Of a stretch of DNA of 64,000 bases, positions 2,529-10,516 are shown piece after piece. Source of the DNA: Hyaloperonospora brassicae (taxonomy: Eukaryota; Oomycota; Peronosporomycetes; Peronosporales; Peronosporaceae); NCBI GenBank assembly GCA_947650285.1, contig CANTFL010001403.1, positions 62,001-126,000 of the forward strand, read 5' to 3'. A model generated the notes under the pieces. The model was not told where the DNA came from and searched no databases. It saw nothing but the letters and a program-made list of their open reading frames with translations. Made by a program: the position numbers and the translations under genes. Position 1 is the stretch's first letter, and each line of letters begins with the position of its first letter.

Positions 2529-2920
2529 TGTAACGGGGCAGCCCGTTACATGAAATTGTCACTTTAAGGAAAGTGACAATAAAGAATATAAATATGGATA
2601 TTCTTTAACCAATATCACCAAAGTGGTGATATTGAAGGGTCGACCAAAGGGTCTGTTCATTGGTTGATATCGTGATGATATCAACCCACCAATCGCCGCA
2701 AGACGCGCGCAATGAGTGGTGACGAGACGTCACCATACATTCAGTTATATTAGTACAGTTAAACTAAGTCAAACGAAGAGACAGTAGTTTAAAGACTTAA
2801 TTATATTAATATAACAGTTCTACTTTTACCCTACCTACGCTTCCTCGCTTGCCACGTGTACGTCCGTCGGGGCACCCAAAAACCCTTGCGTTAAGTTACG
2901 CAAGGGTGTGCCCCGTTACA
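2529..2920 (+). repeat. 5' LTR of Element A
   Basis: The 392-bp repeat starts TGTAACGGGG and ends CCCCGTTACA, giving a 10-bp terminal inverted repeat with the canonical TG...CA ends. The first 22 bases also fold on themselves (TGTAACGGG with CCCGTTACA). Further perfect hairpins follow, among them GTCACTTT/AAAGTGAC, AAAGAATAT/ATATTCTTT, AATATCACC/GGTGATATT and GGTTGATATC/GATATCAACC. A 10-bp stem lies near the 3' end (2882-2891 with 2898-2907). Promoter elements were not pinpointed. Confidence 0.95.
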
Positions 2921-2922
2921 CC

Positions 2923-2930
2923 TGGTAGCA
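2923..2930 (+). other. Primer-binding site (initiator Met tRNA type)
   Basis: Two bases after the LTR the sequence reads TGGTAGCA, complementary to the TGCTACCA 3' end of eukaryotic initiator-Met tRNA. The same bases follow the 5' LTR of Element B at 45103. The match to the tRNA is from general knowledge of tRNA-iMet ends; the tRNA gene of this organism is not in the window. Confidence 0.75.
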
Positions 2931-2964
2931 CTTTGTAGTCCTTCCAAGGACCACATCATCCAAC

Positions 2965-4119
2965 ATGTTCATGTTGGATGAAGAAGACACCTTTCACGCC
3001 ACGCGTGAAGGGTTTACCCATTTGAGTGACATCGAATGGGGTGCGGTAGAACGAATGAGTTCTACCGTAGGCGAACTCGTCGTTAGCGCCATGTTGGAGT
3101 CTCTAGACAGAGACCAACTACATGCCGCTATTGCCAAGTTCATTCAACATGAACTTGTCGCCGAAAGGGAGAAAGTAGCCTTGCTTCACCAGCAAGGCTC
3201 TCAACAGGCCGAGCAGTTGAGAGAACTCGGTGCTCAACAGACGGAGCTGTTGAGACAGCAGCAATTCCATGCTGCTGTGGGCGGGACGGCGCATGCGCGT
3301 CGTCCCGAAGTCATGAAAGTTGACATCTCCAAGTACAGTGGAGTCCCGGAGGACTCCCTGTTACTATGGTTTGTCGAACTCGACAGAGCCCTAAGGGCTC
3401 GTCGCGTCGAAGATGAGCAAATGAAACTCACATTTGCTCTGACCCACTTGGCAGGGCGTGCCAAAACTTGGTCCCTGGGACTCGAGAGTAGCGACCCAAA
3501 CGTGTTTAGGTCGCCAGATGACTTCAAGTCCCGGCTCAGACAAACGTTTGAGCCGCCACGGGCTGAGTTCAGGGCTCGTTCAGAGCTCCTGAAACTCAAG
3601 CAGGGTAAGCGTGATGTGCACGCTTACGCACAACATATACGACTCCTTGCGAGTAGTATAACTGCCAACCCAGTACATGAACACACGTTGATTACGGTGT
3701 TCATGCAAGGGCTCGCAGAAGGGCCCGTCAGGAGCCATCTGTTCCGCCTTGAGCTGAATACGCTTGAAGAAGCGATATCAGCCGCGGAACAGGAAGACTT
3801 TAGCATCAGACAGGCTCATGCTAGCTCAAACTCTTACCGTCCACCGAGACGACAAGAGATCGGAGGTCCAGAATCAATGGACCTCTGTTATGTTGAGAGC
3901 GAGAGACCTCGCTCTTCAAACAACAAGCGATTGCAGAGGTGCAATCGCTGTCAGAAGTTAGGGCACTACGCATACGAGTGTAGTGCTCCACGCCCAGTAC
4001 CAAACAGTACTGAGCGAAATGGACGACCATTTGCCAGAAAGGGCAATGGGCGTGGGTCCAGCGCTGTTGCGAAGCCGCAACAGCGAGACGGACCATCAAA
4101 AAATGGTCGGGGTCAGTAG
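2965..4119 (+). CDS. gag: Element A gag polyprotein
   Basis: The frame encodes 384 residues from an ATG 45 bp after the LTR. Residues about 50-100 are helical and glutamine-rich with repeated LRELGAQQTELLRQQQ-type sequence, likely coiled coil. The capsid-like retrotransposon gag region spans about 115-275, including LWFVELDRALRARRVEDEQ and THLAGRAKTW. A zinc knuckle CNRCQKLGHYAYEC (CX2CX4HX4C) lies near residues 325-340, followed by a basic tail. In this family gag forms the virus-like particle and the knuckle binds the RNA template. The stop at 4117-4119 lies in a region where the pol frame is already open, so pol is probably made by -1 frameshifting. Nearly every 30 bp of the coding sequence contains a short hairpin. 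A decayed homologue lies at 45148-46282. Confidence 0.93.
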   Translation: MFMLDEEDTFHATREGFTHLSDIEWGAVERMSSTVGELVVSAMLESLDRDQLHAAIAKFIQHELVAEREKVALLHQQGSQQAEQLRELGAQQTELLRQQQFHAAVGGTAHARRPEVMKVDISKYSGVPEDSLLLWFVELDRALRARRVEDEQMKLTFALTHLAGRAKTWSLGLESSDPNVFRSPDDFKSRLRQTFEPPRAEFRARSELLKLKQGKRDVHAYAQHIRLLASSITANPVHEHTLITVFMQGLAEGPVRSHLFRLELNTLEEAISAAEQEDFSIRQAHASSNSYRPPRRQEIGGPESMDLCYVESERPRSSNNKRLQRCNRCQKLGHYAYECSAPRPVPNSTERNGRPFARKGNGRGSSAVAKPQQRDGPSKNGRGQ

Positions 4120-4136
4120 GGGCGGAGCGCCCTACT
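4098..4136 (+). promoter_or_regulatory. Candidate -1 ribosomal frameshift site between gag and pol
   Basis: In the gag frame the codons read TCA AAA AAT, giving the heptamer A-AAA-AAT (4098-4104), a form of the X-XXY-YYZ slippery rule. Slipping back one base enters the pol frame, which has no stop from here on. Eleven bases downstream lies a hairpin with GTAGGG (4116-4121) pairing CCCTAC (4130-4135), and it overlaps the gag stop. A second hairpin, GACCAT/ATGGTC (4091-4108), encloses the heptamer. Function is inferred from arrangement only. Confidence 0.45.
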
Positions 4137-9013: not shown

Positions 9014-9992
9014 ACACGCGCCCTAGGCGCTTGTAGACGGATTGCAAGTTCGCAATCGCGTCACGCATCTCAGCCGAGATGTGTGCCCTTCCCCAGGGCG
9101 AATCTAGGGAATACACATCCCTATGTGCACGCTGCGAGTTGTCAACACAACTCGCACAAGGGTCTCCCTATGTGAGGCAAGGAATGCCTGCCTCACTCGA
9201 TAAACAATGCAACCGGTACCTAGCACCGGTTGGCGTTCGCCTTTCGAACCTGAGGCGTGTCGCCTCAAGTTTCTTGAGCCACCCTTCTCGTCCAAAATTC
9301 TTTACGTTTTGGACGAACGCGTTCCACGCAGCCAAAAGCGATGTTTTGTCACGCTTTTGGTTGCTGTTGTACCATCGATGTCTAAGGAAGACATCGAGAT
9401 AAAAATCTTCTTCAGCGCGAAAGTTCTTCGCGCTGGAACTCAAGCCGTGAAGCTCGGTTGCATCGAATAAGGGTATTCGATGGTGTTGGCCTGTCTCGTG
9501 AGACAGGCTATTGATGAGCCGTTCGGGCAAACGCCACGGCTTCAACTCATCACGCTTCACAGTGGTACCCTTGTCGGTACCACGGCTCCCAGATTGACGA
9601 CGGCTCGCGCCATCGTCATCACGCTCGTGCGAAGACGCACGAGCCGGCGGTGGTGAGGAATAGAATTCCTCACCACCCTGATCATCGTCATCACTGCCGA
9701 ACAGACTGTGATGCAAATCACGAGTCCGTTCGTTCGGCAGTGGTCTTGGCAAATACGGAGGCGTCGCCGGTGAGAGAGACGCCTCTGGAGCATTGCCCGA
9801 GTCAGACACGTCTGACTCGCCAGAGTAGATGACCTCTACATCAGGGTCATCGTGCGCACGCGGTGTGATACCGCGTGCACCTGCAGCACCTGCTGCTGCA
9901 GGCGAAGAAGGGGCGGCAGACGACGAATCGTCTGCCGCAGAGGTTTGCACAGCACCGGGCTGTGTGGGTCTTGAGTCACCTCGCATAGACAT
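8385..9992 (-). pseudogene. Antisense ORF of Element A: acidic, conserved-block and coiled-coil protein with one amber stop
   Basis: On the minus strand an ATG at 9990-9992 opens a frame of 536 codons ending TAA at 8385-8387, broken only by TAG at 9168-9170. The N-terminal part is Ala/Ser-rich, then comes DPDVEVIYSGESD, an acidic and Ser/Arg-rich region, and a dense block with ELHGLSSSAKNF, RHRWYNSNQKRD and AWNAFVQNVKNFGREGW (about 9400-9250). Past the stop the frame continues with ISAEMRDAIANLQSV and ends in a heptad-rich coiled coil (about 8760-8430; SEVSYLRDQTDRLERERK). Matching blocks are readable on the minus strand of Element B. The family is not recognised. Antisense ORFs near the 3' end are known in some plant Ty3/gypsy lineages, but no homology to those is claimed. 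Role unknown; a regulatory or structural part is possible. The part 8385-9013 lies opposite pol. Confidence 0.6.
9649..9677 (+). repeat. 13-bp-stem hairpin in the antisense ORF region
   Basis: GGTGGTGAGGAAT (9649-9661) pairs perfectly with 9665-9677 across the 3-base loop AGA. It is one of the longest of the many hairpins in Element A and lies within the acidic/Ser-rich coding part of the antisense ORF. Confidence 0.9.
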
Positions 9993-10111
9993 GTTAACTA
10001 TGCGAGGTCAAGCGGAAAGTGAATGGAACGGACCCAACAAGTGCTCCCTGTCTTAATGGTGGCGAACGGGTGGCCTCCATATTTTCCATAGTCACACGGT
10101 GACTATCAGTT

Positions 10112-10121
10112 AGGGGGGGGG
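10112..10121 (+). other. Polypurine tract of Element A
   Basis: A run AGGGGGGGGG ends three bases before the 3' LTR. Its position matches the plus-strand primer of LTR retrotransposons. In Element B the same place reads AAGAAAGGG. Confidence 0.7.
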
Positions 10122-10124
10122 TGA

Positions 10125-10516
10125 TGTAACGGGGCAGCCCGTTACATGAAATTGTCACCTTAAGGAAAGTGACAATAAAGAATATAAATATGGATATTCT
10201 TTAAACAATATCACCAAAGTGGTGATATTGAAGGGTCGACCAAAGGGTCTGTTCATTGGTTGATATCGTGATGATATCAACCCACCAATCGCCTCAAGAC
10301 GCGCGCAATGAGTGGTGACGAGACGTCACCATACATCCAGTTATATTAGTATAGTTAAACTAAGTCAAACGAAGAGACAGTAGTTTAAAGACTTAATTAT
10401 ATTAATATAACAGTTCTACTTTTACCCTACCTACGCTTCCTCGCTTGCCACGTGTACGTCCGTCGGGGCACCCAAAAACCCTTGCGTTAAGTTACGCAAG
10501 GGTGTGCCCAGTTACA
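10125..10516 (+). repeat. 3' LTR of Element A
   Basis: This is the second 392-bp copy, equal in length to the 5' LTR with about six substitutions by eye and no indel seen. It starts TGTAACGGGG; its last ten bases carry one change (CCCAGTTACA), which breaks the perfect terminal inverted repeat. The flanking bases CTAGG nearly match CTAAG at the left end. Confidence 0.95.

What the first reader, a model, noticed from the sequence alone, without database searches (positions are those of the whole stretch)
2529..10516. Element A is tiled end to end with short near-perfect hairpins, including the coding sequence
Reading along the element, a perfect inverted repeat with a loop of about 12 bases or fewer appears roughly every 25-40 bp. 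My hand list includes about 34 stems of 8 bp or more. Examples: CGTCGTCAAG (6847-6856 with 6861-6870), CGACGACACG (7028-7037 with 7041-7050), CGTCTTCGGG (7307-7316 with 7320-7329), AGCAAGATGG (7371-7380 with 7382-7391), a 13-bp stem at 9649-9677. With equal base frequencies I would expect one or two stems of that size in 7.6 kb. The host genes and LINEs here do not show this. The element RNA would fold as a chain of small stems in LTR, gag, pol and antisense ORF alike, which amino-acid coding alone does not explain. Possible causes: quasi-palindrome correction by template switching during reverse transcription, selection on RNA structure for packaging, or effects on small-RNA targeting.
Basis: partly seen in the sequence, partly recalled or inferred. 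Interest (0 to 1): 0.88.

Follow-up and report, generated by a model that had tools for sequence, protein, structure and literature searches.

The report
Hairpin-tiled oomycete Ty3/gypsy retrotransposons
A mobile genetic element in an oomycete genome is built, genes and all, from about a hundred short perfect hairpins, and copies in which a hairpin stem is damaged rarely pass the damage on, so the hairpins themselves seem to matter, for reasons still unknown.

Summary
Element A (2529-10516) has 102 non-overlapping perfect stems of 8 bp or more (loop up to 12); 1000 dinucleotide shuffles average 1.3, maximum 7, and codon-preserving shuffles of its four ORFs stay as far below. The 47.5 kb outside elements A and B hold nine. 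Element B (44782-52911) is an old copy of the same family. The four Ty3/gypsy families sampled in the window's own genome (oomycete by protein matches) are all tiled, each with its own hairpin span: about 23-26 nt in A, 18-24 in two others, 12-15 in a fourth. Four Ty1/copia pieces stay within shuffles. Among 30 copies, new variants hit stems nearly as often as spacers (29.9 and 33.7 per kb), but shared variants are five times rarer in stems (6.5 and 33.7; p=4e-7). So stems are conserved as nucleic acid. G-T mismatches are about as frequent as A-C and both strands fold equally well, which speaks against sense-RNA folding alone. Template-switch correction is not supported as the maintainer. What reads the hairpins is inferred, not shown.

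The parts
2529..10516 (+). Element A: complete Ty3/gypsy LTR retrotransposon tiled with 102 perfect hairpins (stem >=8, loop <=12)
2529..2920 (+). 5' LTR (392 bp), 7 hairpins of >=7 bp
10125..10516 (+). 3' LTR, 6 differences from the 5' LTR (98.5% identity); flanking CTAAG / CTAGG read by me as a target-site duplication with one mismatch
2965..4119 (+). gag ORF (Retrotrans_gag, Ty3_capsid; zinc knuckle below its cut-off); 12 stems >=8 vs 0.4 expected
4170..8033 (+). pol ORF (protease, RT, RNase H, integrase); 46 stems >=8 vs 1.1 expected
7781..9013 (+). third ORF, other frame, with SH3-like and chromodomain; 14 stems >=8 vs 0.7 expected
9168..9992 (-). antisense ORF, 274 aa, with 33 protein relatives; 16 stems >=8 vs 0.4 expected
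2956..2981 (+). 12-bp stem, 2-nt loop, lying over the gag start codon; loop AA in 28 and TT in 2 of 30 copies (the window copy has TT)
4587..4614 (+). 14-bp perfect palindrome, longest stem of the element
6847..6870 (+). quoted stem, 11 bp when extended; its inner two bases are TT here and AA in element B
7028..7050 (+). quoted stem, 10 bp
7307..7329 (+). quoted stem, 10 bp
7370..7392 (+). quoted stem, 11 bp when extended
9649..9677 (+). quoted 13-bp stem
44782..52911 (+). Element B: old, broken copy of the same family (its LTRs 73% identical to each other), still 32 stems >=8 vs 1.4 expected

Best explanation
The hairpins are an evolved, selectively maintained property of a lineage of oomycete Ty3/gypsy chromodomain retrotransposons. 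Shown: stem mutations arise at about the ordinary rate, but are mostly lost from lineages that go on transposing; individual hairpins turn over between families, while the tiling and a family-specific hairpin size persist. Inferred: the stems act when the element is single-stranded, in both polarities (plus-strand RNA, and its minus-strand cDNA or antisense RNA), folding each strand into a chain of local Watson-Crick hairpins. Inferred further: what sets the size is the element's own nucleic-acid machinery (Gag/nucleocapsid and reverse transcriptase), which handles both the RNA and the minus-strand cDNA and differs between families, so that a copy with a broken stem is packaged or copied less well.
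For: Excess over 1000 shuffles. Singletons per kb: arm 29.9, loop 29.3, spacer 33.7; shared variants: arm 6.5 (13 in 2006 sites), loop 39.1, spacer 33.7; Fisher p=3.6e-7. Shared silent variants in arms: synonymous 11 of 91 vs 27.6 expected by opportunity, non-coding 0 of 35 vs 10. Arms shifted by 12-24 nt show no consistent depletion. 11 of the 13 shared arm variants sit within one pair of a stem end, where 912 of 2006 arm sites lie and 29 of 60 singletons fall. Strand symmetry: 13 G-T vs 11 A-C mismatches beside 1148 pairs in one young copy; folding gain 21.3 vs 21.4 kcal/mol per 150 nt on the two strands. Tiling in families A, C, E, F with spans near 23-26, 19-23, 18-24 and 12-15 nt, absent from four copia pieces. 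Hairpin sites shared by C and E (6 vs 0.6 by chance) but not clearly by A and C (3 vs 1.7-2.4) or A and E (3 vs 1.2, p=0.10). Pairing of third with third codon positions is the rarest phase in pol (6 of 53 stems; not tested against shuffles), as expected if stems are fitted to coding.
Against: No experiment shows that any strand folds or that any protein binds the stems. The synonymous-only contrast of singletons with shared variants is not significant by itself (p=0.19), nor is the 3' region alone (p=0.13). Among F copies one of five comparisons with L064 shows significantly protected arms (L075, p=0.009; the other four 0.20 to 0.89). For stems perfect in B, the mismatches in A are 7 G-T against 2 A-C, a small hint of wobble tolerance against my reading. 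Shared arm variants lie in the right arm 12 times and in the left once (against singletons p=0.002; the 3' region gives 2 and 2), which plain pairing selection does not predict. A 12-bp stem covers the gag start codon, awkward if the RNA is folded during translation. Purging single mismatches in each of more than 100 stems implies strong selection on a very large target.
Confidence: 0.35

Rival explanations
1. Avoidance of silencing. Sense and antisense transcripts of the element fold into short local stems, too short for Dicer, so that long sense-antisense duplexes form poorly and small RNAs reach few open sites. Because both polarities must fold, Watson-Crick pairing is needed on both strands.
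For: Strand symmetry. Stems are capped (none above 14 bp), also in the LTR (8-11 bp), where coding sets no limit. Cover of the whole element including the LTRs. The element carries an antisense ORF with 33 protein relatives, so an antisense transcript is plausible. PMC3522703 (search listing only) has in its title small RNAs homologous to transposable elements in Phytophthora infestans.
Against: Does not predict a different hairpin size in each family of one genome, nor 5-6-bp stems in family F, nor the lack of the trait in the four copia pieces of the same genome. No transcript or small-RNA data were available.
Confidence: 0.25
2. Mutational origin and upkeep. Reverse transcriptase snaps back on nascent cDNA and turns near-palindromes into perfect ones (quasi-palindrome correction); the hairpins have no function.
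For: The excess is above all of perfect stems: one-mismatch stems are little enriched in C and E and not in F. Loop inversions AA/TT at 2956 and at 6847, and three compensated pairs between close copies (L029; an LTR pair; one pair that divides six F copies three to three) show that DNA-level hairpin events or quick compensation happen. Eleven A pairs are changed on both sides and still pair in B. Template switching is among the mechanisms discussed for the nematomorph mitochondrial palindromes (PMC6649704, Discussion read).
Against: Correction should spread about half of the mutations to both arms; about 55 shared stem variants are missing in the 6.9-kb alignment of family A, yet none of the 13 shared ones there is a compensated pair. 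No significant arm difference in nine family comparisons (p 0.08 to 0.94). Four copia pieces, also from reverse-transcribed elements of the same host, lack the excess. Stem length is capped also outside coding sequence.
Confidence: 0.15
3. Dispersed packaging signals in the sense RNA only, as proposed for several RNA viruses: each hairpin binds Gag and many together drive assembly.
For: Hairpins spread over the whole element, family-specific size, turnover of single sites; 7 G-T against 2 A-C in A for stems perfect in B.
Against: G-T wobble pairs, harmless in sense RNA, are not favoured over A-C in three other counts and are purged about as strongly (shared G-T 4, A-C 7; singletons 15 and 24). 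No shared loop motif was seen by inspection; loops are A/T-rich.
Confidence: 0.12
4. A double-strand DNA function such as cruciforms or a protein that binds small palindromes in chromatin.
For: Strand symmetry.
Against: In A, loops of 4-5 nt are commonest and loops of 0-2 rarer, as for folded single strands; no sequence motif was seen; neighbouring DNA has nothing comparable.
Confidence: 0.08

Closest known systems
Genome-scale ordered RNA structure (GORS) of some RNA viruses (recalled; one search gave a listing only)
   Same: Folding energy well below composition-matched shuffles along the whole genome, coding regions included; no conserved positions over long distances.
   Different: Here perfect Watson-Crick stems of narrow size, no clear G-U preference, equal on both strands, in an LTR retrotransposon, with a different size in each family.
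Dispersed packaging signals of ssRNA viruses (PMC6281560, passages read)
   Same: Many hairpins spread through the genome, perhaps read by a protein of the element.
   Different: [quoted passage not shown] no loop or stem motif was seen here by inspection, and the pairing is strand-symmetric.
Coding palindromes in mitochondrial genes of Nematomorpha (PMC6649704, abstract and Discussion read)
   Same: Perfect inverted repeats inside coding sequence, lack of imperfect ones, a bias against one codon-pairing phase.
   Different: Those are long (up to 284 bp) and mitochondrial; the authors leave the mechanism open and discuss repeat conversion. Here stems are short, over 100 per element and capped in length, and the loss of transmitted variants points to selection.
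Yeast Ty3 RNA (PMC11381356, passages read)
   Same: Same superfamily; a palindrome near the 5' end serves dimerization.
   Different: The passages read describe single cis-acting elements; they do not mention tiling of the whole element (the full text was not read).

Membership tests
Ty3/gypsy chromodomain LTR retrotransposon | gag, protease-RT-RNaseH-integrase order | tested here: met
   Pfam matches in ORFs 2965-4119 and 4170-8033
Ty3/gypsy chromodomain LTR retrotransposon | chromodomain at the C-terminal side of integrase | tested here: met
   PF00385 at 1.2e-13 in ORF 7781-9013, in a different frame from pol
Ty3/gypsy chromodomain LTR retrotransposon | paired LTRs | tested here: met
   2529-2920 and 10125-10516, 98.5% identical
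Genome-scale ordered RNA structure | folding energy below shuffles over the whole genome | tested here: met
   pol of one copy: -62.3 vs -41.0 kcal/mol per 150 nt for codon-preserving shuffles; 20 windows of element A: -82.1 vs -56.4 per 200 nt
Genome-scale ordered RNA structure | structure of the RNA itself (wobble pairs accepted, one polarity); feature recalled | tested here: not met
   G-T about as common as A-C (contrary small count 7 to 2); both strands fold equally well
Dispersed packaging signals | shared recognition motif in the hairpins | tested here: inconclusive
   inspection of loop lists and base composition only; no motif seen
Dispersed packaging signals | binding by the element's Gag | not testable with these tools
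   needs purified protein
Quasi-palindrome correction by template switching | mutations spread to both arms | tested here: not met
   none of 13 shared arm variants in the family A alignment is a compensated pair; isolated doubles elsewhere
Quasi-palindrome correction by template switching | one arm preferentially rewritten | tested here: inconclusive
   no significant left-right difference in nine family comparisons; element B differs more in left arms (101 vs 71), shared variants lie more in right arms (12 vs 1)
Known RNA family | match to an Rfam model at gathering score | tested here: not met
   0 matches in 2400-10600

The most novel reading that the evidence does not exclude
Each Ty3/gypsy family of this oomycete carries its own hairpin format (about 13-14, 20-23 or 23-26 nt) along its whole length as a self-identity and integrity code: the family's own Gag/RT recognises the format in RNA and cDNA and propagates only copies whose stems are intact, so that the hairpins serve at once as a self-label against other families and as an error-detecting code.
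Probability: 0.15. Interest if true: 0.95.

Novelty: new variant of a known kind. Interest (0 to 1): 0.85.

Why it matters
If right, a retrotransposon carries a second, nucleic-acid-level constraint over its coding sequence that is dense and is visible in which mutations are transmitted. It makes the question whether retroelement RNA or cDNA structure matters along the whole genome directly testable: four families with different hairpin sizes and untiled copia elements live in one genome as natural controls. It also warns that synonymous sites in such elements may not be neutral, which affects dating and selection tests. Nine literature searches listed no paper that by title or opening of the abstract describes this in retroelements; the library is open-licence only, the longer lists were cut at 10 to 20 rows, and most papers were seen as listings.

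Tried and rejected
Chance and composition: rejected with 1000 shuffles of two kinds. Coding constraint: rejected. A host-wide effect on DNA or on all retroelements: not supported by host sequence, a LINE-like stretch and four copia pieces (one copia piece, L037, lies above the shuffle mean, 4 vs 1.8 at stem >=7, but within the shuffle range). One-arm rewriting as origin: element B differs from A more in left arms of A hairpins (101 vs 71; a clustering test on one side was not significant, p=0.21), but of the arm changes in pol that alter an amino acid 100 of 120 are B-derived by comparison with eight homologs, and other families show no significant side difference. Regular spacing: gaps look random in A and F (CV 1.03, 1.02, 0.94), more even in C (0.61). 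GNRA-like tetraloops: not seen as a rule in the list of loops. Related DNA in viral contigs and genome contigs: none. Pfam for the antisense ORF and four relatives: nothing meaningful. A further query (P0071) for more distant Ty3 families did not complete, so whether untiled Ty3 families exist in this genome is open.
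Full report
What is there. Element A (2529-10516) is a Ty3/gypsy retrotransposon with 392-bp LTRs (98.5% identical), gag, pol, a third ORF with a chromodomain in another frame, and an antisense ORF. 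Its nearest protein relative in the search is from Peronospora effusa (83% identity over 96% of pol); the antisense protein is nearest to unnamed ENA entries and to a protein of Hyaloperonospora brassicae (80%). The window is therefore from an oomycete, probably a downy mildew (inference). Its genome, G000, has 100.6 Mb in 898 contigs.

The observation. The five quoted stems are exact. A full scan gives 102 non-overlapping perfect stems of 8 bp or more with loops up to 12. Counting all maximal stems with loops up to 12, the excess over random is about 51 at 5 bp, 29 to 34 at each length from 6 to 9, 23 at 10 and 10 at 11 bp, and ends at 14 bp; loops of 4-5 nt are commonest and the excess is small beyond about 12-13 nt. 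Total span has its mode at 23-24 nt. 1000 dinucleotide shuffles give 1.3 on average, maximum 7; 1000 codon-preserving shuffles give 0.4 (gag), 1.1 (pol), 0.7 (third ORF) and 0.4 (antisense ORF) against 12, 46, 14 and 16 observed. LTRs, gag, pol and the antisense region have similar density, 13 to 19 per kb at stem >=7; the 44-nt leader has none. Outside elements A and B the window has nine such stems in 47.5 kb.

Element B and the age of the hairpins. 44782-52911 is an old copy of the same family, 81% identical to A over 6.1 kb, its own LTRs 73% identical. It keeps 25 stems >=8 in the aligned part where A has 70. A-B differences are fewer in A's stem arms (13.3% of sites) than in loops (19.7%) or spacers (19.1%); because stems were defined in A, changes on A's own branch are under-counted in arms, so this is only suggestive. 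Eleven of 642 comparable A pairs are changed on both sides and still pair in B, 142 are broken. Of the mismatches that break A stems in B 32 are G-T and 42 A-C; of those in A for stems perfect in B 7 are G-T and 2 A-C.

Copies in the genome. 36 places, the window copy among them, were scored with pol at 96-100% protein identity (36 of 9187 candidates); 30 were fetched, again with the window copy. Pol holds 50-53 stems >=8 in the other 29 copies and 46 in the window copy. In a 6.9-kb alignment of the 30 copies, variants found in one copy occur at 29.9 per kb in arms, 29.3 in loops and 33.7 in spacers; variants shared by two or more copies at 6.5, 39.1 and 33.7 (Fisher p=3.6e-7, arm against spacer). 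The result stands without the older copies (p=5e-7 and 8e-5). By class: non-synonymous singletons 40 of 127 in arms, shared 2 of 54; non-coding 6 of 25 and 0 of 35; synonymous 14 of 69 and 11 of 91, the last contrast not significant by itself (p=0.19), although 11 is well below the 27.6 expected from synonymous opportunities (p=5.5e-5; the 14 singletons are also somewhat below their 20.9, p=0.09). Synonymous and non-coding together give p=0.011. Fake arms shifted by 12 to 24 nt show no consistent depletion. Of 13 shared arm variants 8 are terminal pairs and 3 next to them; singletons are spread as the sites are (29 of 60 in these positions, 912 of 2006 sites). In the 3' region (18 of 20 fetched copies plus the window copy; L055 and L058 were dropped by my similarity filter) the trend is the same but not significant alone: arms 4 shared and 18 singletons, elsewhere 36 and 63 (p=0.13). 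Both regions pooled give p=4.6e-8 (they overlap by about 30 bases).

Selection or correction. If mismatched stems were healed by copying one arm from the other, about half of the lost mutations would reappear as compensated pairs (my reasoning). 68 shared stem variants are expected at the spacer rate and 13 are seen; none of the 13 is a compensated pair. Doubles do occur: one in copy L029, one LTR pair with a mismatched intermediate in another copy, and in family F one pair, next to a 2-nt loop, that is G-C in three and A-T in three of six copies. Loop inversions (AA/TT at 2956, 28 and 2 of 30 copies; inner bases at 6847 between A and B) suggest that DNA-level hairpin events happen now and then. 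No significant one-sided change is seen between families (nine comparisons, p 0.08 to 0.94). Purifying selection is the better reading. Unexplained: 12 of the 13 shared arm variants are in the right (3') arm, although singletons are 33 left and 27 right (p=0.002); the 3' region gives 2 and 2.

Which strand. In a young copy 122 stems with 1148 pairs carry 13 G-T, 11 A-C and 10 other internal mismatches; the window copy 13 and 12. Shared arm variants give 4 G-T and 7 A-C states, singletons 15 and 24. Against codon-preserving shuffles the folding energy gain is 21.3 (sense) and 21.4 (antisense) kcal/mol per 150 nt in A, 6.7 and 7.1 in C, 2.4 and 4.1 in E, 6.2 and 7.0 in F. Loops are A/T-rich. Apart from the 7-to-2 count above, nothing here singles out the sense RNA.

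Other families. Family C (L031, L059, L066, L067; 58-59% pol identity to A) has 13-17 stems >=8 in about 2.7 kb against 0.6-0.7 expected; family E (L060, L068-L071; 69-78% to C) 8-11 against 0.4-0.8. Family F (L064, 57% to A) has no stem >=8 but 24 of 6 bp against 6.2 expected and 57 of 5 bp against 24.7, with spans of 12-15 nt; L065 is alike. Four further F copies, counted without shuffles, look the same apart from one 8-bp stem in L074. Spans are 19-23 nt in C and 18-24 in E. C and E share 6 hairpin sites against 0.6 by chance; A and C share 3 against 1.7-2.4, A and E 3 against 1.2. So sites turn over while tiling and size stay. Codon positions 1 and 2 have diverged more in arms than elsewhere between A and C (0.345 vs 0.271 for A hairpins, p=0.002; 0.395 vs 0.275 for C hairpins, p=0.0001), not significantly so in three comparisons with E and F (p=0.09, 0.23, 0.69): hairpins either cost protein changes or sit in looser regions. 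Within F, arms are significantly protected in one of five comparisons with L064 (L075, 4 of 678 against 42 of 2023 sites, p=0.009); L065 and L074 show no protection, as expected if their differences arose after insertion (inference), and L072 and L073 differ too little. Four copia pieces, of 151 copia-type matches in the genome, have 0, 0, 1 and 0 stems >=8, within shuffles.

Mechanism. Shown: the tiling is real, found in all four Ty3 families sampled and not in the four copia pieces, family-specific in size, nearly strand-symmetric, conserved in transmission. Inferred: the stems act in single-stranded forms of both polarities and are handled by the element's own Gag and RT, because element-encoded factors would differ between families in one host and because these act on both RNA and minus-strand cDNA. 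The silencing rival explains strand symmetry and capped stems but not family-specific size.

Literature. Nine searches of the open-licence library listed no description of this in retroelements. The nearest precedents found are the nematomorph coding palindromes (abstract and Discussion) and dispersed packaging signals (passages).

Noticed in passing
window 9168-9992 (-): Antisense ORF between pol and the 3' LTR has 33 protein relatives (41-95% identity), one in Hyaloperonospora brassicae and one in H. arabidopsidis; no Pfam domain. A conserved antisense gene of unknown function.
   Followed up: partly
window 2965-9013: gag, pol and the chromodomain ORF lie in different frames with overlaps (7781-8033; the pol frame also opens upstream into gag); most of the 36 scored copies keep the same 1339-aa pol frame, so frameshifting is plausible.
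   Followed up: no
window 4170-8033: The window copy of pol has several replacements at positions that are uniform in eight homologs, so this copy may be impaired although its frame is open.
   Followed up: no
6.9-kb copy alignment, family A: Shared stem variants fall in the right arm 12 of 13 times, singletons 27 of 60. Unexplained directionality.
   Followed up: partly
window 2956-2981: A 12-bp perfect stem covers the gag start codon; its 2-nt loop is AA in 28 and TT in 2 of 30 copies.
   Followed up: partly
L064, L065, L072-L075: Family F is tiled with 5-6-bp hairpins of 12-15 nt span instead of 9-bp ones.
   Followed up: yes
window 54104-55648 (-) and about 12000-20000: RNase H-like (RVT_3) ORF and an endonuclease-like ORF (below its Pfam cut-off), probably non-LTR retrotransposon remnants; no hairpin excess in 12000-20000.
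   Followed up: no
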